Positions 30,713-60,493 of a stretch of 64,000 nucleotides of DNA are shown one piece after another. Each line of letters begins with the position of its first letter. Positions within the stretch are counted from its first letter, which is position 1. Both the position numbers and the translations under genes were made by a program. This stretch comes from a virus, in IMG/VR virus record IMGVR_UViG_3300035670_000075, positions 41,388 through 105,387 of that record. One strand, written 5' to 3'. The notes under the pieces are model-generated. The model was given only the letters and a program-made list of their open reading frames with translations. It had not been told where the DNA came from and did no database searches.

Positions 30713-31126
30713 ATGACACAAAAACTCACTCTCGGTGATGTAACCGTACCTAAAGACTGGATGCTGACAACAGACAAGAAATGCCTATCAAGTGGTCTGT
30801 CAGCATATTACTCAGCAATGAGCCACTTGTACGATGCTGAAAATGATGACAACAAGGAAAGAAGCCAATACAAGTACGCGATGGCATTGTCGAGCTTTAG
30901 CCGCTGCTTTGGTTATCTATCAAGATTCGAGGTGAACGTCATACCTGAAGAGCTTGATGCCAGCGACGAAAACCCGTTTTCTTATCTTAAAGTTGGCGAA
31001 ATGAAAACATTATGCGAACAATTTGATGCTGTGCTGTCAACGTACATTGCACCGGCATCGAAAGCGGTAATGCGCAAAAAATCCACAACCCAAAAAGGAA
31101 AGCACAATGCAAAGACCGGAAATTGA
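30713..31126 (+). CDS. Phage protein of unknown function
   Basis: 137 residues; the ATG lies at the dut stop and the end overlaps the reductase gene by 20 bases. Helical, with KKCLSSGLSAYYSAMSHLYD, AMALSSFSRCFGYLSRFEV and a basic tail. No motif is recognised. Its place between dUTPase and ribonucleotide reductase suggests a replication or nucleotide role. Confidence 0.55.
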   Translation: MTQKLTLGDVTVPKDWMLTTDKKCLSSGLSAYYSAMSHLYDAENDDNKERSQYKYAMALSSFSRCFGYLSRFEVNVIPEELDASDENPFSYLKVGEMKTLCEQFDAVLSTYIAPASKAVMRKKSTTQKGKHNAKTGN

Positions 31127-33755
31127 TTTCCAAAACACTCATGCTACGGCGGTAAAAGTCCTTGAGCGCCGTTACTTGAAAAAAGATGCCGACGGCAAGC
31201 CGGTAGAGAAACCTGAGGATATGTTCTGGCGTGTGGCGCAGAATATCGCACAGGCTGAATCAAGCTTTGAAAGCATCGAACAGTGGGCTGATACATTCTA
31301 CAAAATGATGGTACGCTGCGAATTTATGCCAAATTCACCGACTTTGATGAATGCCGGGCGCGACCTGCAACAACTGTCAGCCTGCTTCGTCCTGCCGGTT
31401 GGCGATTCGATGGAAGAAATCTTTGAAACACTGAAGCACACCGCGCTTATCCATAAGTCAGGCGGCGGCACCGGGTTTTCCTTTACGCGCCTGCGCCCGA
31501 AGAATGACCGCGTGCAATCTACCCACGGCGTATCCAGCGGCCCGGTATCGTTCATGAAGATTTTTGACGCCGCCACCGAGCACGTCAAGCAGGGCGGCAC
31601 GCGGCGCGGCGCGAACATGGGTATTTTGCGTGTTGACCACCCGGATATTTTGGAGTTCGTCGAATGCAAAGCCAATGGCGGCATTCAGAATTTCAATATT
31701 TCCGTCGCCATTACCGATAAATTCATGACCGCGATTGATAACGGCGGTGAATACGCACTGATCAATCCCCGCGACGGTAGCGAGCATAGCAAACTGAACG
31801 CCCGCGAAGTGTTCGGCAAAATCATCGACTTGGCGTGGAAAACCGGCGACCCTGGCTTGGTGTTCATCGACCGCATCAATGCCGCCGCGCCGACTCCGGC
31901 GCACGGCTTCATTGAAGCCACCAATCCGTGCGTGACTGGCGATACGCTGGTGATGACCGTTGATGGCGCGGTAACGGTGCGCTCTATCGTCGGCAAGCAG
32001 GTTACGCTACTGGTCAACGGGGACGAGCACCGCACTACGCAAATCGGGTTCTATGAAACTGGGGTAAAGAAGGTTTTTCGACTCGCTCTGGAAGACGGCA
32101 AGACGGTTAAGCTGACCGAGAACCACATGGTTATGGTGTACCGCGCTAACAAGCAGTTGTGGGTGGAAGCCAAAGACATCAAGACTGGCGATAAAGTCCG
32201 CGTACACGACCACGAAGAAGGCAAACTGCGCTACTCGCGCTTCCTCAGTTTGATCCCATGCGGTGAGGAAATGGTGTACGACGTACAGGTTCCTGGCGTC
32301 AACGCATTCGATGCCAACGGCATTTACGTCCACAACTGCGGTGAGTTGCCGCTGCAACCCAACGACGCTTGTACACTCGGCAGCATCAATGTCGCCAAGT
32401 TTGTTGACGAGAATGGTGATATTGATTGGGTACAGTTGAAAATCTGCGTGCAACACTCAGTACGCTTTCTCGATAACGTGCTGGACATGAACCACTACCC
32501 GCTGCCGCAAATCGCCGACATGACCCGTGGCAACCGCAAAATTGGCTTGGGCGTGATGGGCTTCGCTGACCTGCTGATTGAGATGGGCATTCCCTACGAC
32601 AGCAAAGAAGCCGTCAAAGTAGCTCACAACGTTATGGGCTGCATCAATGACACCGCTGACGCCTACAGCCGCGTACTCGGCGCTGAGCGTGGCGAGTATC
32701 CGTTCTGCGAAAAACCTGAGCACCGAGGTCGCCGCAATGCCACTGTCACCACCATCGCGCCGACGGGTACGATTTCCATGATTGCGGGGTGCTCCAGTGG
32801 TATTGAGCCGCTGTTCGCGCTTGCTTACGTCAAAAATGTGATGGACAACACGCCGCTTGTCGAAACTAATGCGGCATTTGAAGCCACAGCAAAAGCATTT
32901 GGTTTCTATAGCGACGAGTTGATGCGCAAGGTCGCCGAACATGGTGGTGTTCATGATATGGACGAAGTGCCGGAAGATGTGCGCAAGGTATTTGTGACTT
33001 CTCATGACATCGTTCCGCATTGGCACGTTGCCATTCAAGCGGCGTTTCAAGCGCATACCGAAAACAGCGTGTCGAAAACCATCAACTTAGCCAACAGTGC
33101 CACCAGAACTGACGTGCGCGAAGCGTATGAAATGGCGTGGAAAACTGGATGCAAAGGCATCACCATTTACCGTGACGGCTGCAAGGATACGCAAGTGCTG
33201 TACACTGGCACCAAAGACCCGAACAAGAAGCCTGAAGCGGTTGCCGGTACACCGGAAGTGACGGCGCACATCCATCCACGCAAGCGTCCTGGTGTTTTGT
33301 CTGGTGAAACACAAAAAGTCGGTACAGGTTGCGGTAGCCTGTATGTAACGGTCAACCAGGAAGAAGGTCAGCCAGTGGAAGTGTTTGCGCAAATGGGCAA
33401 AAGTGGTGGTTGCGCCACTGCACAAACACAGGCGATTACCCGCCTGGCGTCAATCGCGCTGCGTGCCGGTGTTGACAGCAAGGAAATCGCGGAACAGTTG
33501 ACAGGCATTCGTTGCCCTGCGCCGCAGTGGGGTGTTGGCGGCATGATTCTGTCTTGCCCTGATGGTATCGGCAAGGTGTTGTCTGGTTTAAGTTTGACCG
33601 CAGAGTTGCCTATGGGTGACAAAGCTGATAAACTGGTTAACAACAGTCTGAGCGGTGACATTGTTGGCATGTGTCCAGATTGCGGTCATGTGCTGGAGTT
33701 CGTCGAAGGCTGTTCGGTGTGCAAGTCGTGCGGGTTTTCTAAGTGCGGCGGGTAA
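31107..33755 (+). CDS. nrdJ: Class II ribonucleotide reductase (adenosylcobalamin-dependent) with mini-intein
   Basis: 882 residues including an intein at 275-410. Catalytic features: QQLSACFVLPVGDS, HKSGGGTGFSF, GTRRGANMG, the active-site NP-CGELPL split by the intein, and APTGTISMIAGCSSGIEP. The end is a zinc ribbon (MCPDCGHVLEF, CSVCKSCGFSKCGG) typical of NrdJ. It reduces ribonucleotides with B12 and needs no second subunit. Splicing would leave about 746 residues. It is the key enzyme of the phage dNTP pathway here. Confidence 0.93.
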   Translation: MQRPEIDFQNTHATAVKVLERRYLKKDADGKPVEKPEDMFWRVAQNIAQAESSFESIEQWADTFYKMMVRCEFMPNSPTLMNAGRDLQQLSACFVLPVGDSMEEIFETLKHTALIHKSGGGTGFSFTRLRPKNDRVQSTHGVSSGPVSFMKIFDAATEHVKQGGTRRGANMGILRVDHPDILEFVECKANGGIQNFNISVAITDKFMTAIDNGGEYALINPRDGSEHSKLNAREVFGKIIDLAWKTGDPGLVFIDRINAAAPTPAHGFIEATNPCVTGDTLVMTVDGAVTVRSIVGKQVTLLVNGDEHRTTQIGFYETGVKKVFRLALEDGKTVKLTENHMVMVYRANKQLWVEAKDIKTGDKVRVHDHEEGKLRYSRFLSLIPCGEEMVYDVQVPGVNAFDANGIYVHNCGELPLQPNDACTLGSINVAKFVDENGDIDWVQLKICVQHSVRFLDNVLDMNHYPLPQIADMTRGNRKIGLGVMGFADLLIEMGIPYDSKEAVKVAHNVMGCINDTADAYSRVLGAERGEYPFCEKPEHRGRRNATVTTIAPTGTISMIAGCSSGIEPLFALAYVKNVMDNTPLVETNAAFEATAKAFGFYSDELMRKVAEHGGVHDMDEVPEDVRKVFVTSHDIVPHWHVAIQAAFQAHTENSVSKTINLANSATRTDVREAYEMAWKTGCKGITIYRDGCKDTQVLYTGTKDPNKKPEAVAGTPEVTAHIHPRKRPGVLSGETQKVGTGCGSLYVTVNQEEGQPVEVFAQMGKSGGCATAQTQAITRLASIALRAGVDSKEIAEQLTGIRCPAPQWGVGGMILSCPDGIGKVLSGLSLTAELPMGDKADKLVNNSLSGDIVGMCPDCGHVLEFVEGCSVCKSCGFSKCGG
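31929..32336 (+). other. Mini-intein inside nrdJ
   Basis: Residues 275-410 interrupt the conserved NP-CGE active site. Block A begins CVTGDTLVMTVDG with the nucleophilic Cys. Block B has LTENHMVMV (Thr-x-x-His). The C-terminal block runs VYDVQVPGVNAFDANGIYVHN and ends in Asn before the +1 Cys. At 136 residues there is no room for a homing endonuclease, so it can splice but not home. The site matches known reductase intein insertion points. Confidence 0.92.
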
Positions 33756-38487: not shown

Positions 38488-38604
38488 AAAAAAGAGTGGC
38501 CGCGACTGAAAAACTCTGTACCTCAAATTGGGAACTCAATTTGGAAATGCGGGAGACGGAATCATGAATTCACCACCGATTGCCGGGTACGCTCACTCTT
38601 TTTT
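38488..38604 (+). ncRNA. Candidate structured small RNA
   Basis: About 117 bases close on themselves: AAAAAAGAGTG at 38488-38498 pairs fully with CACTCTTTTTT at 38594-38604. Inside, GTACC (38518) pairs with GGTAC (38586), CAAATTG (38524) with CAATTTG (38537), and CGGAATC with GATTGCCG. The 3' arm ends in six T and would work as a terminator. No convincing gene overlaps it. It lies between the kinase and DUF5131 genes. The class is not recognised. Confidence 0.55.
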
Positions 38605-38640
38605 ATGTGCATTAACTGAGATATTTGCATCGAGGATGAA

Positions 38641-39477
38641 ATGTCTAACATCGCATGGACACAAAAAACACTAAACTCAGCGACAGGCTGCACCGAAACA
38701 TCGCCTGGTTGCAAATGGTGTTACGCTAAGCTTCTGATGGAGCAGAGACTTGCTAAAATGCCGCACTTGGAAAAGTACGCCGGACGAAAGTTTCATGACG
38801 TGCAGTTTCACGAAGAAGAACTGCAAACGCTTTACAAAACACGCAAGCCGACTGTGTTCTTCCTGAACAGCATGTCAGACACTCTTCATGAGCGATTTGG
38901 CGAGCACGAAATATTAAAGACGCTGATCGCAATAGCAGATAACCCGCGCCATACTGTACAAGTTCTTACGAAGCGCGCTGAGCGCATAGAGCTTCTTGAG
39001 TCTGTATGGAGAAACCACGCTGGCGACAAATTGCCACGCAACATATGGCTTGGTGTAACCGTTGAAAATGCTGATTACATTGGCAGGATAGAGCATCTTC
39101 GCAACTCTAGCGCTGCCGTGAAATTTATATCGCTTGAGCCGCTGCTTAGCGATATACCGAACGTCGATTTAAGCGGGATTGATTGGGCGATTGTCGGCGG
39201 AGAGTCTGGACGCAAAGCCCGTGCAATGCATCCGAATTGGGTGCGCAATATCTTGCGCCAGTGCCGCGAGAATAACGTAGCATTCTTCTTCAAACAATGG
39301 GGAACTTACGCGCCAATAATCGGTGATCATATCAATCCTGGTGCGTGTAAAAAAACGCCTATCCATCTCGCACACGGTCATGCGTTTGAGAAAATGCGGA
39401 CGCCGAGATATGCTGTTTTGGATGGTGTTGTTTTGCAGGAGTATCCAAGGCATAGTGAGGAAAAGTTATCATGCTGA
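38641..39477 (+). CDS. DUF5131 (phage Gp37/Gp68) radical-SAM-like protein
   Basis: 278 residues. SNIAWTQKTLNSATGCTE then SPGCKWCYAK gives the three-Cys set of DUF5131 proteins, related to radical SAM enzymes. TVFFLNSMSDTLHE, VLTKRAERI, NIWLGVTVENADY, FISLEPLL and VGGESGRKARAM are family segments. Often encoded in phages; a role in nucleic-acid modification or repair is suspected but unproven. Confidence 0.88.
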   Translation: MSNIAWTQKTLNSATGCTETSPGCKWCYAKLLMEQRLAKMPHLEKYAGRKFHDVQFHEEELQTLYKTRKPTVFFLNSMSDTLHERFGEHEILKTLIAIADNPRHTVQVLTKRAERIELLESVWRNHAGDKLPRNIWLGVTVENADYIGRIEHLRNSSAAVKFISLEPLLSDIPNVDLSGIDWAIVGGESGRKARAMHPNWVRNILRQCRENNVAFFFKQWGTYAPIIGDHINPGACKKTPIHLAHGHAFEKMRTPRYAVLDGVVLQEYPRHSEEKLSC

Positions 39478-46207: not shown

Positions 46208-46310
46208 CAATTTTAACGCGCAAGTCATTGATTAAGATAGTATATTACTAGACATAGCACGCAAAATAATTTACATTATTTTATATGTATTATTTTTATA
46301 GTTGACACAG

Positions 46311-47387
46311 ATGGAAACTGAAGATTTAGAAGAAAATCATGAATCGGATACGCGCGAAAGACTTCTCAAGAAATACGCCGCAAAATCCATACGGAAAAAG
46401 ACGCGGCAAGACTACGAATCAAGACTTAGGCTTTATCAAGCGTCAGGTAGAAAACTTCCAGCAACTGACGTTGAAATCGTAGAATACATCGAATCGGCAA
46501 AAGTCATGTCGCGTAAGAAAAACGGCGAATACATTACCAAAGACAGCTTGCTTGCTGTGTCATCAGTCCAATCAATAGTTGCTGCTTTGTCGTGGTGGCA
46601 TCAAGAAAATAACCACCAAGACCACACAAATAGCGCGCTGGTTAAAAAAGCCATTGCAGCAATCAAGCGCGAACGCGCAAAACCGCAAGCGCAAGCGCGA
46701 GCAATAAAAACTGAAGAAATTGCAGCAATCACTGAAACGCTACTCGAACTACAAACAACCCAAAATGCCGCAGACAATCTCCGCGCAATCCGCGATCTGG
46801 CTTTTATCCTCGCGCTGTTTTACACCGGGTGCAGAGAAAGCGAAATCCGTCACCTCAGAGTTGATGATCTGGAGTTTACAGATGACGGTCTAATCGTAAA
46901 AATCAGAAAGTCAAAAACAGACGACGGAACTGGAAGAAACACGCCAATCCCATACCGCGATGCTAACGGACAAAAAATACTCGCGGCATACGCGATCTCT
47001 GATTGGATTGAAAAGGCTGGAATAAAGTCTGGCTTCGTATTCAGAACAGTAGACCAATACGCTGTCGTCGGTCGTGGGAAAAAGCCGCTAGACTATGGGT
47101 TTTCTTCACGGACACTACTCAAATACGCAGAGATGTCAGGCGTATCAATAGACGGAATCAGCACACACTCATTCAGAGCCGGGTGCGCAACAGCACTAAA
47201 TTTAAGCGGCGCAGGTATTGCCGAGATAGCGCAGCACTTAGGTCATCGCTCAACGGCGTCAACGATGAAATACTTACGCGCCGACGCATCAACCAGACTT
47301 AAAGACGCACCAACACGGAAAATTGCGCAGCCAAAGAAAACTTTTACGCAGATAGTTTTCACGTTTATTGCACGTTTATTTTCGTGA
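46311..47387 (+). CDS. Tyrosine recombinase (not IntI type)
   Basis: 358 residues from the ATG at 46311; a TTG at 46302 is possible. Core residues: Arg in GCRESEIRHL, His-x-x-Arg in HSFRAGCATAL, Gly-His in HLGHRS and the Tyr nucleophile in STMKYLRA. The N-terminal domain is a SAM-like fold typical of core-binding domains. The extra helix and motifs of integron integrases are not seen. It points toward the tmRNA-like attachment site. It may be a second integrase or a resolvase of the element. Confidence 0.8.
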   Translation: METEDLEENHESDTRERLLKKYAAKSIRKKTRQDYESRLRLYQASGRKLPATDVEIVEYIESAKVMSRKKNGEYITKDSLLAVSSVQSIVAALSWWHQENNHQDHTNSALVKKAIAAIKRERAKPQAQARAIKTEEIAAITETLLELQTTQNAADNLRAIRDLAFILALFYTGCRESEIRHLRVDDLEFTDDGLIVKIRKSKTDDGTGRNTPIPYRDANGQKILAAYAISDWIEKAGIKSGFVFRTVDQYAVVGRGKKPLDYGFSSRTLLKYAEMSGVSIDGISTHSFRAGCATALNLSGAGIAEIAQHLGHRSTASTMKYLRADASTRLKDAPTRKIAQPKKTFTQIVFTFIARLFS

Positions 47388-47531
47388 TGTTGTTTTGCAA
47401 TTAAAAAACAATAACTTATGAAATAAAGCCAAGTGTTCGATTCCCGCCGCCTCCACCAATAACCCTGCGCTATCCGGCGTTATGACGGCAATTTAACACC
47501 TCATAACGCCGCATATCCCCTCGTAAACATT
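47388..47531. other. Intergenic junction between convergent recombinases
   Basis: Contains a TTGTTTT/AAAACAA hairpin after the left gene, the tRNA/tmRNA 3'-end match at 47433-47458, and an 11-bp stem CGGCGTTATGA (47475-47485)/TCATAACGCCG (47501-47511) before the integrase stop. The last could be a terminator or an integrase arm site. Confidence 0.6.
47433..47458 (+). other. Attachment site core: 3' end of a tmRNA/tRNA gene
   Basis: The 26 bases GTGTTCGATTCC-CGCCGCCTCCACCA match the T loop, T stem and acceptor with CCA of a tRNA-like 3' end. They agree best with the end of tmRNA (ssrA), a common integration target. No 5' part of such a gene lies upstream. Placed 74 bases from the integrase stop, it is the expected attP, or attL/attR if integrated. 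Confidence 0.75.
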
Positions 47532-48668
47532 TCACGATTTTTGCACGTCGAGTGATTCCAGCATGGCTTTGAATTTGTCTCCGGCGTTGGGTGCTGCGGT
47601 TGGCATCCAGCGCGCGTAGAATTTGCGGATCATTGCCCAGTCAGAGTGTCCCATCACGCTTGCGATCCATGCCGGGTTTTCGCCAGCGGTGAGCATCATG
47701 CAGGCGAATGTGTGGCGGGTTTGATAGGGGTAGCGGTAGCGTACTCCGGCGCGCTTCAGAGTTGGACGCCAGACGAATTCCCGTATAGTTTTGTCGTTGC
47801 TGTACGGTTTGTTGGTTTTGGGGTCGAAGAAGATTTGTGCGGCGTGGTGGTAGGTGTGTGATTTTTGTGCAATCACGGCTTCTAACGCGGGGTCGAACAA
47901 GGGGACTTCGCGGCGGCCTGATTTGGTTTTTGGTTCTTTGGTGATTTTGCGTGATTGACTGAGGCGGATGAATACGCGGCGGTTGGGTTCGTCAAAGTCT
48001 TCCCACCGTAGCGCTAGGAGTTCGCCTGTGCGTAGTCCGGTGAAGAAGGCGAAGCGGATGAGGTTGCGGTGTTGTTCGTACTCGCAGGCGGCGAGGATTT
48101 GTTGAATCTCTTGCGGGGTGAATGGATCGGGTTCTTGCGTGGTGGTTTTGAGGTTTTTGATTTTGTCGGCTGGATTGCGTTCAATGGTGCCGTCAATGTA
48201 GGCGTCTTCGAGCATTCCGCGCAGCGGGATCATGATGTTGTTGATGCGCTTGTTGCTGATGACCAGTCCGGCGATCCAGTCTTTGATGTGGGCTGTTTTG
48301 AGGTCTTTGAGCTTGATATGACCGAACTGAGTTTTCAGGTGGTGATCAATCGCGCTTTGGTAATCGCGGATCGTGGTGTGTGATTTGCCGTGGCTGTTGT
48401 TTCGCAGCCAGGCGTCCAGCGCCTCGGCAATGGTTATTGCGGTAGGCGCGTAGTCGTCGAATAGGGTTGCGCGTTTTGAGTTGGGGAAATGTTTGCGGTA
48501 GCTGAATGTGCCTACTGCTATTTCATGCTCGATGGCAGCGGCAAGACGCTCGCCGTGTTTTCTATTGGTCAGCGTGTCTTTCAGGCGCAGGCTCTCGCGG
48601 CATTGCACGCCGTTGAGGACGAACCCGATCCACAGCCTGTCGCCGTCTCTTGTGTAGATTTTCGCCAT
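47532..48668 (-). CDS. int: Phage integrase (tyrosine recombinase)
   Basis: 378 residues from the ATG at 48668. The N-terminus (AKIYTRDGDRLWIGFVLNG) is the arm-type DUF3596 domain. The catalytic part has TGLRTGELLALRW, YQTRHTFACMM, MGHSDWAMIRKFYARW. The first His of box II is Tyr, as in this family. It overlaps the excisionase gene by about 107 bases, the usual int-xis layout, and its stop faces the attachment site. Confidence 0.9.
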   Translation of the reverse strand: MAKIYTRDGDRLWIGFVLNGVQCRESLRLKDTLTNRKHGERLAAAIEHEIAVGTFSYRKHFPNSKRATLFDDYAPTAITIAEALDAWLRNNSHGKSHTTIRDYQSAIDHHLKTQFGHIKLKDLKTAHIKDWIAGLVISNKRINNIMIPLRGMLEDAYIDGTIERNPADKIKNLKTTTQEPDPFTPQEIQQILAACEYEQHRNLIRFAFFTGLRTGELLALRWEDFDEPNRRVFIRLSQSRKITKEPKTKSGRREVPLFDPALEAVIAQKSHTYHHAAQIFFDPKTNKPYSNDKTIREFVWRPTLKRAGVRYRYPYQTRHTFACMMLTAGENPAWIASVMGHSDWAMIRKFYARWMPTAAPNAGDKFKAMLESLDVQKS

Positions 48669-48852
48669 GTGCGCTGGTATTTCCCCACATCCAGTTACGA
48701 ATCGCATCTAAATCATACACGATTCGTTTGCCGTCAGGGGCTTTTTTCCAATGCACGCCTTCCAGCCAATGCCCAAGTCGGCGATGAGACTCTTGGGATT
48801 TTTGGCTGTAGCCTGTTTCGCGCGCCAATACGTCACCGAGTACCGGCGTCAT
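48562..48852 (-). CDS. xis: Excisionase-like protein
   Basis: 96 residues from the ATG at 48852 (GGAG 8 bases upstream). LGDVLARETGYSQKSQESHR, LGHWLEGVHWKKAPDGKRIV and YDLDAIRNWMWG have the winged-helix pattern of phage excisionases that bend attachment-site DNA. The start overlaps the preceding stop (ATGA), and the body overlaps int. Family inferred from size, position and motif. Confidence 0.65.
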   Translation of the reverse strand: MTPVLGDVLARETGYSQKSQESHRRLGHWLEGVHWKKAPDGKRIVYDLDAIRNWMWGNTSAHGENLHKRRRQAVDRVRPQRRAMPREPAPERHADQ

Positions 48853-51621: not shown

Positions 51622-51642
51622 GATGCCTCCGTTTTGCTTCAA

Positions 51643-52006
51643 GTTATTGAAAGTTAAAATTTATTTATTTATTTAATTTATTATTATTTTTATAAGTATA
51701 TGATTGATGTAATGTTTATGCTTTTGTCGCAGACTTGATGCAGAGTTGTGCAACTAAGTCATTGAATGTAGTAATGATGCAAATATTCACGCATTTTTTC
51801 TCGCGTATGAGTTTATTTTTTTTTGATGCGCCAAGCGTCGTGTTTTCACATGTACGCGCACGGGAGGTTTTTACATCAAAAAACTGCTTCATTACTACAA
51901 TCAATAACTTAGTTGCACGGCTTTGCGACATCTTTGCGACAAAACCACTTTTATTACTTCTTTCAATCAGTTGCGATTTCATTTTTAGGCTTTGTTTACG
52001 GTGAGG
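51643..52006. other. AT-rich intergenic region with large inverted repeat (candidate origin)
   Basis: No gene in 360 bases. Arms 51748-51777 and 51889-51918 (30 bases, 2 mismatches, GTGCAACTAAG at the base) flank 111 bases. TTTGTCGCA near 51723 and TTTGCGACA twice near 51922-51942 form an outer set of repeats. The left end is pure A/T. Its place between helicase genes fits a replication origin with iterons, or a long structured RNA. Confidence 0.5.
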
Positions 52007-53857
52007 CTATTCAACATAGCAGGATAAAACTCTGTTTACATTATCGGCTTGGTTATTTTCATTGTCAACTAACCCAAAGCTGTAAGCTATAGGGGATATT
52101 GAATCGCCGTTTTCAGTAATCCTGACACCAAAAATCTTACTCCTGCCGCGAACTCTATCAAAGCACACGCCTTTCAATCCGCGCACATCGCGTAACAATG
52201 TGACAAGTTTGCGGCTAAAGTTCTGGACGTTGTATCGCTTGATTTCAAACTCTGACTCATTGCTTTCGTGCGCCCATTGCAGGAAACTTGGCAGCAAGTG
52301 CGTATCATAAAATTCGTAAGTAACACTGCGGTCATCCGCCGACATCAGCTTTTTAACACCAACTTGAACGCCGTCACCGTATTCTGTTCTATTCCAGTCG
52401 TTGTCAGGATACCCTTTCGGCGGCTCTACATACGCCAGCTTGTCATGCGCCCACCGCGCTAAAATGTTGCCGGACAATAGGCTTTCCATTTCATCCTGTT
52501 TAATTTCGTCTGATTTATCGTTGGCAGCATCGGTCAAAATATCCATTGCTTGTTGCTCGGATATTTTCAATACCTTGTTAATCAGCCCAGGTAACTCAGG
52601 TCTTAAGATGGGCTTGAGGTCTTTTTGGGTTTCTGAAACGTGATGAAAATACAGCACAATTAGGCGTCGCAACAAGCCAACATCGTCGGTATTTAGCACG
52701 CTATTTCCGGCGCAGGCCATAATTCCTTTGTGCCTAATCATTGCGTCGCGTGCCAGTGAGTTGATGTGCTTCAACTTGAACGGCATATCCTCGCCTGAAG
52801 ACAATAGTTTGAGCATTGGCAATGATCCAGCAACCTTATCGTAATCGGCTTCGTCAATGATGATTGCCCGCATATCCTTGAAATTAGTCGCCTCATGCTT
52901 ATCATTCTCAAGCCCTCTTAGCGTTGTACCCATATAATTACCAACGCCAACGAGGTCTTTGAAAATACCCATCACCGTACCCTTGCCTGCTCTTGGCGGG
53001 CCTGCCATGTACAATATTTTCTGATAGCGGTTCAAGTCACCAGACAGCATTAAGCGCATAAACGCCAAAAGAATCATTACCTTGCCTGGGACTGGACGCT
53101 TCTTCAAATCGGCAGTTGCTTCACTTAAAAATTTATCAATTGTTGGGCATGTCGCGTCCGGATCGTAATCAAACCCTAATTGCCAAGTGAAAAAATAATT
53201 CGGGTCATGCGGGCCGAGCTTGCCTGTGCTAAGACTGTAAACACCATTGGCAAATGGCACTAAGTCAGGATCGCTATTCCATTTATCACGCCATAACTTA
53301 CCAGCAAGAAATCTGGCTACGCCGTCAGGCGTTGACGCGCCATAACCGCTGCCGTAACCAGGGTTTGATGCGCAGAATTCCTTTATTTTTTCATCTACCA
53401 AATTAAACACCATAGGCTGTTTAATTTTTCCAACGACTTCCCATACACCGCTACCGTTGTAGCGCATAAACGTGTCAGTCACCGGATCAACGGCAATCTC
53501 ATTATCACACCTGTCGGCGATGGCTTCCGCGATTTGGCTTTGGCTATACGTCAAACTAGCCTGAAATTCTAACTGTTGCTGGCTATTGGTATCATCGTTA
53601 CCTAATTCATGCCGCACCTTTTTCAGAAAAGCATTGAGGTCGCGCGCCGTCACGCCATTGAGCTTAGCCGCCATCTTAGGGGTCAGCGTTTTTACGTCAA
53701 GGTCATCAATGGTGCTGTCAGCCGCCATTTCAGCGATAATCTGACGCGCAAAAGCGAGATCGTCTTGTTGTAATTCCTCATCTACCATCACCTGATAGCG
53801 ACTTTTGCGCTGAGACTTGGTTTCCAGTGATGCGATACTTAATGTTCCATTACTCAT
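52007..53857 (-). CDS. Phage/plasmid primase-family SF3 helicase (D5/P4 alpha-like)
   Basis: 616 residues. The N-terminal half is the D5_N-type region (VPFANGVYSLSTGKLGPHDP, FTWQLGFDYDPDATCP). The SF3 helicase has Walker A (MAGPPRAGKGTVMG), Walker B (AIIIDEADYDK) and the motif C-like IMACAGNSVLN. In P4-type systems such a helicase opens the origin. The start overlaps the primase stop (ATGA), so the two may act as a split P4 alpha pair. Confidence 0.9.
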   Translation of the reverse strand: MSNGTLSIASLETKSQRKSRYQVMVDEELQQDDLAFARQIIAEMAADSTIDDLDVKTLTPKMAAKLNGVTARDLNAFLKKVRHELGNDDTNSQQQLEFQASLTYSQSQIAEAIADRCDNEIAVDPVTDTFMRYNGSGVWEVVGKIKQPMVFNLVDEKIKEFCASNPGYGSGYGASTPDGVARFLAGKLWRDKWNSDPDLVPFANGVYSLSTGKLGPHDPNYFFTWQLGFDYDPDATCPTIDKFLSEATADLKKRPVPGKVMILLAFMRLMLSGDLNRYQKILYMAGPPRAGKGTVMGIFKDLVGVGNYMGTTLRGLENDKHEATNFKDMRAIIIDEADYDKVAGSLPMLKLLSSGEDMPFKLKHINSLARDAMIRHKGIMACAGNSVLNTDDVGLLRRLIVLYFHHVSETQKDLKPILRPELPGLINKVLKISEQQAMDILTDAANDKSDEIKQDEMESLLSGNILARWAHDKLAYVEPPKGYPDNDWNRTEYGDGVQVGVKKLMSADDRSVTYEFYDTHLLPSFLQWAHESNESEFEIKRYNVQNFSRKLVTLLRDVRGLKGVCFDRVRGRSKIFGVRITENGDSISPIAYSFGLVDNENNQADNVNRVLSCYVE

Positions 53858-54987
53858 GCTGCTTTCCGCTTGTTATATTGATGCCACTCCGCAATATCGG
53901 CAAAGTCGCATTTACGTGGGTTTCCGCCCGTGGCTTTAGACCACATATGCACGTCAGTCGGTGACGGTTGCACGATTTCCACGGCAATTTTAGGGCGCTC
54001 CTCGGTAATGACGCGATACAAAGCTCTTGCTGCGAACATTCCAGCGCCCTCCGGTTTGCTTTCTGTAGGTTGGTCGGTATCCGCCAAAATAAACAGTTTG
54101 CGGATATTGATTAACCCTATATCAATCAGCTTAAAAATTAATAGATAGGACAAGCTTAATTGCCTATCGTTATAACACGCCCACACCGGCAACTGTGGGT
54201 AATCCTTGTGTACCGCCAACGCCGATTCGATACCTTCTGCAACGCCCAGTATGTCAGTCGCCGGATAGAGTTGACAGGCAATGCCGTCACCCCACTGGTC
54301 ATCTTGTCCGAGGATTTTCTTGGCGGACGACACAGGCGCTTTGCCGCGCCCGTCAGCCTGCAAAAACGTTCTATGCAGCGCCGACCAACCGTGCGGGTTC
54401 TCGAACCACGCCGTCATGACGGGGAAAAATTCGCCGCTATCGGAATGCTTCAGATGTTCATGCAATCTGAGATTATCCGGCAATCTATCTGGCGGCAGCA
54501 CGCCGCGTGACTTCAAATAGTTGATCAGGAGTTGATGACCAGGCTTTGACTCGCCCCACAGCCTTTTAATGTAGGTGGCGCGACTTTTGGTTTTTTTTTC
54601 CGCCGTCACAGGTGGTGGAGGCGTGGGAAGAATTCTGCGTGGGCGAGGGTTTAGTTTATCCGCAAACGGATTGGTAATACCAAAATAATCAGCGAAGAAG
54701 TCGTTGGCTTCTTTGTTACTGCCAAGGTAATCGGAAATAAATTTTGATGTATTGAGATAAAAAGTTTTAGGGTTGCATCCGCGACAGCCGAATGCACCAA
54801 CGTTGCCTTTATGTTTGTTGAAATGAAAACGATCTTTGCCACCACATATCGGGCATGGAATAGGCTTGCCGTCCCATTGCGAATCTACCGCGCCAACAGC
54901 AACCAGTAAATCAAGCGGGCTAGTTTGCTCGACGCGCTGATTTATCGCGGCGTAAAAATCTCTGACCTCGTTTTCGCGGTCATTCAT
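53854..54987 (-). CDS. DNA primase (zinc finger + Toprim)
   Basis: 377 residues from the ATG at 54987 (GGAGG 5 bases upstream). IPCPICGGKDRFHFN and FGCRGCN form the zinc-binding domain of phage primases. GVAEGIESALAV and LFILADTD are Toprim metal sites. A Pro-rich linker lies at about 115-130. It makes primers for lagging-strand synthesis and pairs with the SF3 helicase. Confidence 0.9.
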   Translation of the reverse strand: MNDRENEVRDFYAAINQRVEQTSPLDLLVAVGAVDSQWDGKPIPCPICGGKDRFHFNKHKGNVGAFGCRGCNPKTFYLNTSKFISDYLGSNKEANDFFADYFGITNPFADKLNPRPRRILPTPPPPVTAEKKTKSRATYIKRLWGESKPGHQLLINYLKSRGVLPPDRLPDNLRLHEHLKHSDSGEFFPVMTAWFENPHGWSALHRTFLQADGRGKAPVSSAKKILGQDDQWGDGIACQLYPATDILGVAEGIESALAVHKDYPQLPVWACYNDRQLSLSYLLIFKLIDIGLINIRKLFILADTDQPTESKPEGAGMFAARALYRVITEERPKIAVEIVQPSPTDVHMWSKATGGNPRKCDFADIAEWHQYNKRKAA

Positions 54988-55124
54988 AAAAGCCTCCAAC
55001 TAGCTATCGCAGTTCGTTGTACTGCACGGTTTTATTATGGGTTGTGGTAACGCTGGTGTTGGCAGTATCACCAACAGTCCGGGCTTTTCTTTGGCATGTA
55101 AAGGCACTTGAAGCGCTGTCAGTA

Positions 55125-56441: not shown

Positions 56442-56513
56442 TCTCGTTCCCACGCCACTATTCTCGTTCCCACGCGCCGAGTGGGAACGAGAAGTGATCG
56501 GCGCGTGGGAACT
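56442..56513. repeat. GTTCCCACGC palindromic repeat cluster
   Basis: TCTCGTTCCCAC (56462-56473) with GTGGGAACGAGA (56481-56492) is a perfect 12-bp stem, with further half copies at 56442 and 56501. REP-like elements of this kind recur at 57091-57113 and 57729-57840. Confidence 0.75.
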
Positions 56514-57718: not shown

Positions 57719-57840
57719 TTCCCAATCATCTCGTTCCCACGCGCCGCGTGGGAATGCCGAAGCACCGCGCTGCGGTGCGTACCGTAAGCCGCTCCGCAGC
57801 GCGGAGATTCCGCGTTCCCACGCAGCGCGTGGGAACGAGA
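57719..57840. repeat. GTTCCCACGC repeat cluster
   Basis: Three nested hairpins: TCTCGTTCCCACGC with its inverted partner, GCACCGCG/CGCGGTGC-type arms, CTCCGC/GCGGAG, and GCGTTCCCACGC/GCGTGGGAACG. Same family as at 56442. Confidence 0.75.
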
Positions 57841-57963
57841 TGTGATGCTATATAAATACGTCATCTCACCATATATCCATATCATACATAAAATCTTCTT
57901 GAAATCACCTCGTAAATTGCGTAAAATTTTCAGCATCAAATGGCAACAAGCACAGGTGCAAAT

Positions 57964-58704
57964 ATGCAAAATTTTCCGCAAATCAATTTCGCCGATGTGG
58001 TCGGCGAACTCCTAGAAAAATACAAAACCCCCTACGCAGTCGGCGTGGAGATGCAGCGCCTAAACTCCGCAGTCGGCGGGCGTAGCTACGGCTCGGCGGT
58101 CAAGCGACTGCACAGTGGCGAGGTAAAAGAACCCGGCTTCACGGCGGGCGTTACGTTGCTGCTGTTGGCGGGAAGGCAGGTTGAAATCAGTCGGCGGGGC
58201 GGCGACAGCACTGCCAGTCCTCAAAGGACTGGCAGTGCTGGTGGTGATGAAATCACCCGTCGGTGGGACGGCGACGCCATGCGGCGGTTGCGGGAGTCGT
58301 GTTCGGTGGATGGTTGGTGGAACTTGAGCGGCGGCGAGTTCGCGGCGTTGATTGCCGAGAAGGGCGGGCGTGACATTTACCGCGCCACTAGCGTATGGCA
58401 AATAGAATCTGGTATTGCACCAGTGCCGCAATGGGTTAGCGCGGCGCTAGATAAGATACAAGCCGATGTCGATAGCGGGAAAATACCGCGTTCGACACGG
58501 GTACGCAGTTCGCTGCACAAGTCCAGCGAACCAACCAATTTAGTGCAGCAAGTTTTGCAGGCAACCGGCATGAGTATGGAAGCACTCGGCGGGAAAATGA
58601 ACCCACCCATCACGCGGGCGGCGATTTCGACAATGGCAAGAAGCGGGAAAATCCCTAAGCGGCATATTGAGGTATTGCAAAGCCTATTAACTAAGTCGGC
58701 GTAG
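57964..58704 (+). CDS. Protein with two HTH-like parts and palindrome-encoded linker, unknown
   Basis: 246 residues from the ATG at 57964 (ATG at 57940 possible). The N-terminal third (FADVVGELLEKYKTPYAVGV) and the C-terminal third (VLQATGMSMEALGGKMNPPI, ISTMARSGKIPKRHIEVLQS) both resemble helix-turn-helix regions. Residues about 82-95 (DSTASPQRTGSAGG) are encoded by a perfect 15-bp inverted repeat, likely an inserted element. Followed by a strong terminator. Confidence 0.5.
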   Translation: MQNFPQINFADVVGELLEKYKTPYAVGVEMQRLNSAVGGRSYGSAVKRLHSGEVKEPGFTAGVTLLLLAGRQVEISRRGGDSTASPQRTGSAGGDEITRRWDGDAMRRLRESCSVDGWWNLSGGEFAALIAEKGGRDIYRATSVWQIESGIAPVPQWVSAALDKIQADVDSGKIPRSTRVRSSLHKSSEPTNLVQQVLQATGMSMEALGGKMNPPITRAAISTMARSGKIPKRHIEVLQSLLTKSA

Positions 58705-58737
58705 TCTTGTAACACCAACTGTATAGGCGGCGTGAGT

Positions 58738-58779
58738 AGCGCCAGTCTGATGACTTGTTATCAGACTGGCGCTTTTTTT
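58738..58779 (+). terminator. Strong intrinsic terminator
   Basis: Perfect 14-bp stem AGCGCCAGTCTGAT (58738-58751) with 58760-58773, 8-nt loop, then seven T. Confidence 0.9.
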
Positions 58780-58978
58780 GTGTGCGCGAAATCACCCGGC
58801 GGCTACCCTGGTAGTGCGCGGAAGCGCTGCAAAGATGGCAAAATATAGCGTAAATACCTAGTATTTTAGTCAAGAAAAAAAATCCCGAAAAACCCTAGTA
58901 TATAGGCATTTTTTTTAATGTTATCAAATACTTATAAAAATGCGTCTTTTTTAGTGTTTTGTGACATAGACAAATATC

Positions 58979-59023
58979 TTGACACTATATATAGTGAGCA
59001 CACTATTTAATTATAGTGTGCTC
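58979..59023 (+). promoter_or_regulatory. Promoter with two palindromic operators
   Basis: TTGACA at 58979-58984 and a weak -10 near 59004 (TATTTA). CACTATATATAGTG (58983-58996) is a perfect palindrome overlapping the -35. GAGCACACTAT (58996-59006)/ATAGTGTGCTC (59013-59023) is a second one over the -10 and start, so the promoter is likely tightly controlled. Confidence 0.6.
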
Positions 59024-59922
59024 TATAAAAGTTTGATGTAGTCGCTAGCGCGTGGCTTTTGTCGCGTGGCTTGGGTGCGATTACTTCTTTTATGCCTTAG
59101 TGCTCAAACTTAATAGCGCAGTGCTCTATAAAAATTTGATTTTGCTTGATTGCTTGCGATTTTTCCCAAACTGAAAATTCCGACTATATGCGTTTATCGC
59201 ATGGTGACGGCTTGGCAGATCGAACAAGTGAAGGTGAGCAGTATACATAGCTGTTTAAGGGTATAGGCCATACCCTTAATATTCCGCAAGTGCCTAGCCT
59301 GAATTAACAGGGAGTAGGGATAAAACAGCGTTGAAACATAGCAAACCAGACCGGGAATAGTGAAAAAAACGACAGATCAGGCAGATGAAAAACATTATAG
59401 ATTGCTATTTAACAATTTGCATATACAGTACAACGAACCGAGACGGAACGTAGCGGGGCGTGTGCCTGTAGGTTAGCGCGGCTTTCGCCCGTGGCGTTTT
59501 GCGCCCTGGCGATTGCGTTTACGTGCCTACCTTTGGTGGTATGGGTTGGGGCTATTGCCTGTCGTCCAGCTTTATACCTACAGGATAACGGATTGCGTGA
59601 TGTTGTGCAAGTCACGCAAAGACACACGCCTTATGATACCCGGCGATAGTCGCGCCCATACTTCACTTTAGATCAGCGCGGAGTCGGGGAAGTCTTGTCA
59701 GAAATGGCAAGCGTCCATGATGTCTCAGTGAAGGGATATTCGTTGCCCGCTTATATTCCTTGCCTGTGAAGGTCAATCGTAAATATAAGTAACCGACTGA
59801 TAATCGGATAATCCGGCTATGTGAAACACCATAGCGGCGGGGGCTGTTTGCGTCTAGCAACAGCTTACTTAGGGTACGGATTTTTCTCTACAACCCCGTG
59901 ATGTTTTGCGGGGTTGTTTCTC
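59020..59922 (+). ncRNA. Candidate large structured non-coding RNA
   Basis: About 900 bases with no credible gene lie between a regulated promoter and a terminator. Many hairpins are exact: TTAAGGGTAT/ATACCCTTAA (59255-59279), TTGCGTGA/TCACGCAA (59593-59619), GCTATG/CATAGC near 59815. A long-range helix CCTGTAGGT (59465)/ACCTACAGG (59576) closes a 120-nt domain. GTGCTCTATAAAA.TTTGAT occurs twice (59018, 59121). This layout recalls the large phage RNAs GOLLD and ROOL, but I cannot match a class. Confidence 0.5.
59890..59922 (+). terminator. Terminator of the non-coding region
   Basis: ACAACCCCG (59890-59898) with CGGGGTTGT (59909-59917), 10-nt loop, followed by TTCTC. Confidence 0.65.
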
Positions 59923-59980
59923 AATAGCATTCTACAGAGTGTTATTGAGTAAACAATCCCACCACACAGAGAGAAATCCC

Positions 59981-60184
59981 ATGAAAAAATCCTATTCCAG
60001 CGTAGGCGATCTTGCGCCTGAAGTGTTGGCAATCTATGCCACGCCGAAAGGCAAAAAAGACTCACTCCAAGAAATTCACCGCCGTCGCCGCAATGCGCCT
60101 GCTTGGGCGCGGCGTGAGTTTGACAAGGCTTTTCCCAAACTTGCGCCGCAAATTAAGCGCACGCAAGGCTATGTAAGGAGTTAA
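59981..60184 (+). CDS. Small basic protein, unknown
   Basis: 67 residues from the ATG at 59981 (AGAGAG upstream). KKSYSSVGDLAPEVLAIYAT, then a basic segment IHRRRRNAPAWARREFDKAF. Short basic helical proteins like this often bind nucleic acid. It starts a run of small plus-strand genes. Confidence 0.55.
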   Translation: MKKSYSSVGDLAPEVLAIYATPKGKKDSLQEIHRRRRNAPAWARREFDKAFPKLAPQIKRTQGYVRS

Positions 60185-60188
60185 TGCC

Positions 60189-60398
60189 ATGAATCGCTTA
60201 TATGTTCGCCTTTGGATGTTAAGCCGTCGCTATAAAATCGAATGGGTAAAAAGCATTGGGTGGGCTGTTACGCATAAGCCTAAATTAGGTGGCGTATACA
60301 CCATTCATGCCTTGCCTGAACAATTTGCTGACGCTTGGCAAAGCATTGATGATGATGAAGATTTGCAGTTAGCATTATCATGTTTTTGCCCACGATAA
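60189..60398 (+). CDS. Small protein, unknown
   Basis: 69 residues; AAGGAG 9 bases before the ATG. Aromatic (RLWMLSRRYKIEWVKSIGWA), with an acidic end (WQSIDDDEDLQLALSCF). Follows the previous gene by 4 bases. No family is recognised. Confidence 0.5.
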   Translation: MNRLYVRLWMLSRRYKIEWVKSIGWAVTHKPKLGGVYTIHALPEQFADAWQSIDDDEDLQLALSCFCPR

Positions 60399-60460
60399 AC
60401 CGTATGCTATAGCGAGTTTCCAAAAGCTCGCTATGTCATGCGCTTTGCGCAGTAGTCCGT

Positions 60461-60493
60461 ACCCGCTTGGACAATCCAAGCGGGTATTTTTTT
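60461..60493 (+). terminator. Intrinsic terminator
   Basis: Perfect 10-bp stem ACCCGCTTGG (60461-60470)/CCAAGCGGGT (60476-60485), 5-nt loop and a run of T. Confidence 0.9.

What the first reader, a model, noticed from the sequence alone, without database searches (positions are those of the whole stretch)
58979..59922. About 0.9 kb promoter-to-terminator region with no gene: candidate large structured RNA
A TTGACA promoter overlaid by two perfect palindromes opens a stretch with no plausible gene, at least five clean hairpins, a long-range 9-bp helix and a terminator at 59890-59922. Large ornate RNAs (GOLLD, ROOL) of this size are known in phages and prophages, and their functions are still debated. 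This may be a new member or a new class.
Basis: partly seen in the sequence, partly recalled or inferred. Interest (0 to 1): 0.78.

Follow-up and report, generated by a model that had tools for sequence, protein, structure and literature searches.

The report
Orphan gene-free stretch in a phage
A poorly known, probably temperate phage carries an unusually long (about 0.9-kb) stretch with no protein gene, opened by a promoter-like site with two matched palindromes and closed by a hairpin; it probably makes a long untranslated RNA, but no relative could be found, so whether that RNA has a conserved structure remains unproven.

Summary
The anatomy is largely real; the "large ornate RNA" reading is plausible but unproven. 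Window 58705-59905 is the longest ORF-poor gap in the 64 kb (1,201 bp; next 576). It is non-coding by stops and codon usage. A promoter-like site is present, but the best match is TAGACA-17-TATAGT (58967-58995), not TTGACA at 58979. Two palindromes sharing the half-site CACTAT/ATAGTG cover it and the expected start; such a pair occurs 0.03 times per 64-kb shuffle. The end hairpin (59890-59917) is real, but its U-tract is weak. Between those ends, structure is not above ordinary phage DNA: core fold z = -2.25, hairpin counts near chance, and the "9-bp long-range helix" is expected 1.9 times by chance. A transcribed ~0.8-kb ncRNA of phage ICP1 scores the same (z = -2.09), so stability cannot decide. 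ROOL and GOLLD models do not match; no Rfam family does. No homologue appeared in phage, plasmid or IMG/VR searches; gammaproteobacterial genomes could not be searched, so covariation is untested. Most likely reading: an orphan phage long non-coding RNA under a dedicated repressor. Main rival: a long leader attenuating two small downstream genes.

The parts
57940..58704 (+). Upstream 254-aa protein with weak helix-turn-helix resemblance in the middle (HTH_31) and at the C-terminus (carph-isopro domain); candidate regulator of the palindromic promoter
   Evidence: Matches far below curated cut-offs: HTH_31 E 0.017, residues 111-171; carphisopro E 0.0074, residues 203-248. AlphaFold2 from the single sequence failed (pLDDT 37). 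Its role as regulator is inference from position.
58738..58773 (+). Strong intrinsic terminator of the upstream gene, isolating the unit
   Evidence: 16-pair stem followed by TTTTTT
58841..59030 (.). AT-rich stretch (26% GC in 180 bp) with an IHF-consensus match TATCAAATACTTA at 58922-58934
   Evidence: among the lowest-GC stretches of the window; IHF match is consensus only (8 matches on both strands of the window)
58967..58995 (+). Best promoter-like site TAGACA-17-TATAGT (10 of 12)
   Evidence: 3.7 sites of this quality expected by chance in 2 kb
58983..58996 (.). Palindrome 1, CACTATATATAGTG, overlapping the -10 element: operator-like
58996..59023 (.). Palindrome 2, GAGCACACTATttaattATAGTGTGCTC, same half-site, at the predicted start; operator and/or 5'-terminal hairpin of the transcript
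   Evidence: paired same-half-site palindromes 2 in 60 shuffles of 64 kb
59000..59922 (+). Candidate untranslated RNA, about 0.92 kb
   Evidence: longest ORF-poor gap, no coding signal; transcription itself not shown
59019..59038 (+). Copy 1 of a 20-nt direct repeat GTGCTCTATAAAAGTTTGAT (19 of 20 identical), start of the transcript
   Evidence: family D1; exact 20-nt boundaries read
59122..59141 (+). Copy 2 of the repeat, GTGCTCTATAAAAATTTGAT; both copies can pair with TCAAACTT at 59104-59111, possible alternative pairing
   Evidence: function is inference
59255..59279 (+). Perfect 10-bp hairpin TTAAGGGTAT-aggcc-ATACCCTTAA
   Evidence: P 0.88
59539..59661 (+). Predicted interrupted ~18-bp long-range helix 59539-59546/59654-59661 and 59550-59559/59642-59651
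   Evidence: P mostly 0.93-0.99; 59530-59670 z -2.78 on +, -1.08 on -
59694..59711 (+). 7-bp hairpin CUUGUCA-GAAA-UGGCAAG with a GNRA tetraloop
   Evidence: P 0.99
59890..59922 (+). Terminator-like hairpin (12 pairs) with a weak U-tract, possible partial terminator
   Evidence: not listed by the terminator scan
59981..60184 (+). 67-aa ORF downstream, no promoter of its own found between 59923 and 59980
   Evidence: codon score 0.131; promoter scan
60189..60398 (+). 69-aa ORF with Shine-Dalgarno TAAGGA
60459..60487 (+). Strong intrinsic terminator ending the 67-aa/69-aa pair, where a read-through transcript would stop
   Evidence: 13 pairs then TTTTTT

Best explanation
A phage gene for a long untranslated RNA of about 0.92 kb. 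It starts at about 59000 from a promoter that a phage DNA-binding protein blocks by binding two palindromes with the same half-site, is capped by a 7-11-bp hairpin at its 5' end and ends at the hairpin 59890-59917. When the repressor is lifted (for example on induction) the RNA accumulates and acts as an RNA, in trans, like the abundant long RNA of phage ICP1; some transcripts read through into the two small downstream genes. Shown: no coding capacity, paired palindromes beyond chance, end hairpins. Inferred: transcription, repression, accumulation, action in trans. What the RNA acts on is not indicated by any data here: it has no antisense match to the rest of the record above chance, so a structural or protein/ribosome-binding role is more likely than base-pairing to phage mRNAs.
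For: Longest ORF-poor gap in the window, twice the next; non-coding by stops, codon usage and absence of ribosome sites; isolated upstream by a strong terminator; promoter-like site with its predicted start exactly where the second palindrome begins; paired palindromes 0.03 per 64 kb by chance; the + strand folds better than the - strand in 59420-59675 (z -3.01 vs -0.95), 59530-59670 (-2.78 vs -1.08) and 59680-59800 (-2.86 vs -1.17); the transcribed ICP1 RNA, same size and also in a phage without tRNAs, has the same whole-region z (-2.09 vs -2.25 here).
Against: Core folding z -2.25 lies inside the spread of ordinary segments of the same phage; hairpin counts in the core are near chance; no homologue and no covariation; the terminator has a weak U-tract and was not picked by the scan; promoter-like sites of this quality are common by chance; no transcription data.
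Confidence: 0.42

Rival explanations
1. Long 5' leader. The 0.9-kb stretch is the untranslated leader of the 67-aa and 69-aa genes, and the hairpin at 59890-59917 is an attenuator that a phage factor or a switch in the leader's folding relieves, as at lambda PR'-tR'. The terminator at 60459-60487 ends the full transcript.
For: No promoter-like site between 59923 and the ATG at 59981; weak U-tract at 59890 versus strong terminators at 58738 and 60459; a repeated 20-mer whose two copies can compete for the same partner TCAAACTT.
Against: 0.9 kb is far longer than known attenuator leaders (established knowledge); promoter scans miss phage-specific promoters; nothing known about the two downstream proteins.
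Confidence: 0.27
2. A DNA-level region: replication origin or other protein-binding DNA, or degenerated sequence left by gene loss, with no functional RNA. AT-rich DNA, an IHF-like site and palindromes lie beside a replication module (primase-helicase genes at 52007-54999).
For: 26% GC over 180 bp at 58841 and IHF-consensus match; D5-type helicase and Toprim/zinc-ribbon primase 4-7 kb away; interior structure not above ordinary DNA.
Against: No iterons and no DnaA box in the region; no GC-skew turning point of the record here; six-frame search of the longer remaining ORFs found no decayed gene; the AT-rich part is only the first 200 bp, leaving 0.8 kb unexplained.
Confidence: 0.22
3. One or more very short proteins are encoded in the stretch and the rest is spacer.
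For: ORFs of 30-72 aa exist on both strands, three with slightly positive codon scores (0.03-0.04).
Against: Scores below every control gene tested in the neighbourhood (0.08-0.24), no ribosome-binding site with an ATG, no family match.
Confidence: 0.06

Closest known systems
ICP1 long noncoding transcript between gp139 and gp140 (Vibrio phage ICP1, HQ641347; PMC7567579)
   Same: About 0.8 kb in a ~1-kb ORF-less gap of a large phage, no tRNA genes in the phage (none here either, although this record has a tmRNA), closes with a GC-rich terminator hairpin, same folding z-score (-2.09 vs -2.25), no Rfam family above its gathering score.
   Different: No sequence similarity (best blastn E 0.65); ICP1's RNA is transcribed by RNA-seq, this one is not tested; different gene neighbours; ICP1 is lytic, this phage carries integrases.
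GOLLD RNA (Rfam RF02032)
   Same: Size range and phage location.
   Different: No match to the model in the whole 105-kb record at E up to 10; no tRNA genes nearby.
ROOL RNA (Rfam RF03087)
   Same: Phage location; rough size (0.6 kb vs 0.9 kb).
   Different: No match at E up to 10; no tRNA island.
Phage K lnc001/lnc002 (PMC9241854)
   Same: Long abundant untranslated transcripts in intergenic regions of a phage, unrelated in sequence to GOLLD/ROOL.
   Different: Beside tRNA genes; virulent staphylococcal phage; no similarity found (one search covers the GenBank phage collection).

Membership tests
GOLLD RNA | Match to the covariance model of the conserved 3' region (RF02032) | tested here: not met
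   No match at E up to 10 in G000; none in lax cmscan of 58700-60200. No positive control genome scored over the cut-off, so sensitivity to very diverged members is not calibrated.
GOLLD RNA | Usual location beside tRNA genes | tested here: not met
   No tRNA in the window or the rest of the record; only a tmRNA about 62 kb away
ROOL RNA | Match to covariance model RF03087 | tested here: not met
   No match at E up to 10 (nothing rang in the control genomes either)
GOLLD/ROOL-like ornate RNA in general | Conserved base pairs with compensatory changes | not testable with these tools
   No homologue found
GOLLD/ROOL-like ornate RNA in general | Homo-oligomeric cage | not testable with these tools
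   needs cryo-EM or mass photometry
Phage long noncoding transcript (ICP1 kind) | Long ORF-less stretch without coding signal | tested here: met
Phage long noncoding transcript (ICP1 kind) | Discrete abundant transcript | not testable with these tools
   no RNA data
Group I or II intron, tmRNA, other Rfam RNA | Match to an Rfam model | tested here: not met
Replication origin with iterons | Iterons or DnaA boxes | tested here: not met

The most novel reading that the evidence does not exclude
A new class of large structured phage RNA, unrelated in sequence to GOLLD, ROOL and the ICP1 RNA, encoded by an isolated, probably temperate phage and switched by a dedicated two-palindrome repressor, possibly assembling into multimers as GOLLD and ROOL do.
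Probability: 0.2. Interest if true: 0.75.

Novelty: new member of a known kind. Interest (0 to 1): 0.4.

Why it matters
The most abundant transcripts of several phages are long RNAs of unknown function. A candidate in a probably temperate phage with a recognisable regulated promoter would allow induction, deletion and repressor tests that are hard in lytic phages. It also illustrates that folding energy cannot separate such RNAs from ordinary phage DNA: a transcribed one (ICP1) and this candidate score alike.

Tried and rejected
Rfam at gathering and lax thresholds: nothing. blastn (distant) of the region in 50,697 phage and 72,556 plasmid records: nothing. Relatives through proteins in IMG/VR: the 474-aa, 254-aa, 616-aa, terminase and 67-aa proteins: none; the single hit for the 67-aa protein (L013) is 14 residues inside an unrelated long ORF, rejected. 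Two 16-mers of the region in IMG/VR: six loci, each only 16-17 identical bases, rejected as chance. Pattern for the GDGQQRATT motif of the 474-aa protein: none. 292 genomes of that locus's phylum gave three short, scattered matches to different parts, rejected as chance. Antisense match to other parts of the record: nothing above chance. Origin of replication: no iterons, DnaA boxes or skew turn. Structure of the upstream protein from one sequence: unusable.

Full report
What the window is. It is bases 41388-105387 of a 105,387-base IMG/VR virus record. The record carries a large terminase, a ribonucleotide reductase, two tyrosine integrases, a RecD-like helicase and a D5-type primase-helicase module, so it is a tailed and probably temperate phage. 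It is isolated: its terminase is at most 37% identical to GenBank phages and none of five proteins tried had a relative in IMG/VR by the exact-octapeptide scan. The integrase is closest to gammaproteobacterial ones (44% to a Pseudomonas plasmid-borne one), and a short repeat element matches a Thiodictyon plasmid, so the host is probably a gammaproteobacterium; this is inference.

The observation. 58705-59905 is the longest stretch without an ORF of 80 aa or more in the window, 1,201 bp against 576 for the next. Every frame of 59003-59889 has 10-20 stops and a negative codon score, while neighbouring short genes score positive. No ATG-started ORF of at least 20 aa has a ribosome-binding site of even 4 bases, and seven candidate ORFs match no Pfam or PHROGs family below E 0.1. 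The gene-free claim stands.

The promoter end. The only forward promoter-like site is TAGACA-17-TATAGT at 58967-58995; chance gives 3.7 sites of this class in 2 kb, so the match alone means little. What raises it above chance is the pair of palindromes with the same half-site CACTAT/ATAGTG: spacing 2 at 58983 and spacing 6 at 59001, the latter with arms extended to 11 bp. Such pairs occur once in the window and in total twice in 60 dinucleotide shuffles of the 64 kb. Palindrome 1 covers the -10 and palindrome 2 the expected start, the usual placing of repressor operators. Because the predicted +1 is at about 59000-59002, palindrome 2 would also be the 5' hairpin of the RNA; both roles are possible. 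The gene directly upstream (57940-58704) has weak helix-turn-helix resemblance in two places, which makes it a candidate regulator; that is inference. The operator motif occurs nowhere else in the window or the rest of the record, so it looks dedicated to this unit.

The far end. The hairpin 59890-59917 is predicted with P 0.97, but is followed only by TTCTC, and the terminator scan did not list it although it listed 58738-58773 and 60459-60487. Read-through into the 67-aa and 69-aa genes is therefore likely, and these have no promoter-like site of their own. This is the basis of the leader rival.

The interior. The whole 926 nt folds with z -3.28 (20 shuffles), but that includes both end hairpins. 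The core 59025-59885 has z -2.25 on the + strand and -1.78 on the complement; 30 comparison folds of 861 nt elsewhere in the window range from +0.85 to -7.64, and many are comparable. 300-nt windows in the interior lie between about -1 and -1.7 on the + strand. Counts of perfect hairpins in the core are near chance. The best predicted long-range element is instead the interrupted ~18-bp helix 59539-59559/59642-59661. Sub-segments chosen after seeing the fold give z near -3 on the + strand and near -1 on the - strand (59420-59675, 59530-59670, 59680-59800), mild and post hoc support for a + strand RNA.

A calibration. Phage ICP1 makes an abundant ~800-nt transcript in a ~1-kb ORF-less gap between gp139 and gp140, in a phage without tRNA genes (PMC7567579). 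Its gap (HQ641347, L023:4098-5108) was fetched and folds with z -2.09 sense and -1.69 antisense, the same as here. Folding energy therefore neither supports nor refutes the RNA reading. The two are not related by sequence (best E 0.65).

Family membership. ROOL (RF03087) and GOLLD (RF02032) find nothing in the record at E up to 10, and no Rfam family reaches threshold in the window (lax). These searches had no positive control over the cut-off, so a very diverged member is not strictly excluded. There are no tRNA genes in the record.

Homologues. None were found in phages, plasmids or IMG/VR. The genome collection was reached only for one cyanobacterial-phylum neighbourhood, which is not the likely host. 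Absence of homologues is therefore a limit of the search as much as a property of the region, and covariation remains untested.

Judgement. A transcribed untranslated unit is the simplest account of a long gap with a doubly palindromic promoter-like site and an end hairpin. I put 0.42 on a stand-alone long RNA, 0.27 on a long leader with attenuation, 0.22 on a DNA-level or decayed region, and 0.06 on short proteins. A new class of ornate RNA is possible (about 0.2) but rests on no direct evidence yet.

Noticed in passing
L003:18578-18914 (record G000 position 38578-38914): A complete tmRNA gene (Rfam tmRNA, 161 bits; tag ANDERYAVAA) inside the phage record: either phage-encoded or a copied/host ssrA attachment site.
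   Followed up: no
31107-33755: Ribonucleotide reductase large subunit interrupted by an intein-like insert: Intein_splicing and Hint matches at residues 315-380 between two parts of the barrel domain; closest to B12-dependent enzymes.
   Followed up: partly
56445-56493, 57106, 57732-57837, and L002:52, 671, 6310: REP-like palindromic elements with CGTTCCCACGC...GCGTGGGAACG in phage intergenic DNA; a 31-bp match in a Thiodictyon plasmid hints at a gammaproteobacterial host.
   Followed up: partly
46302-48707: Two convergent tyrosine integrase genes side by side (46302-47387 + and 47532-48707 -).
   Followed up: no
51643-52006: AT-rich non-coding gap (24% GC near 51641) with nested inverted repeats such as AGTAATGATGCA...; the segment 51400-52261 has z -7.6 on + and -5.7 on -, much more structured than the region in question.
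   Followed up: no
59917-59952: Imperfect palindrome TTTCTCAATAGCATTCT-AC-AGAGTGTTATTGAGTAA just before the 67-aa gene: possible operator or hairpin of its own.
   Followed up: no
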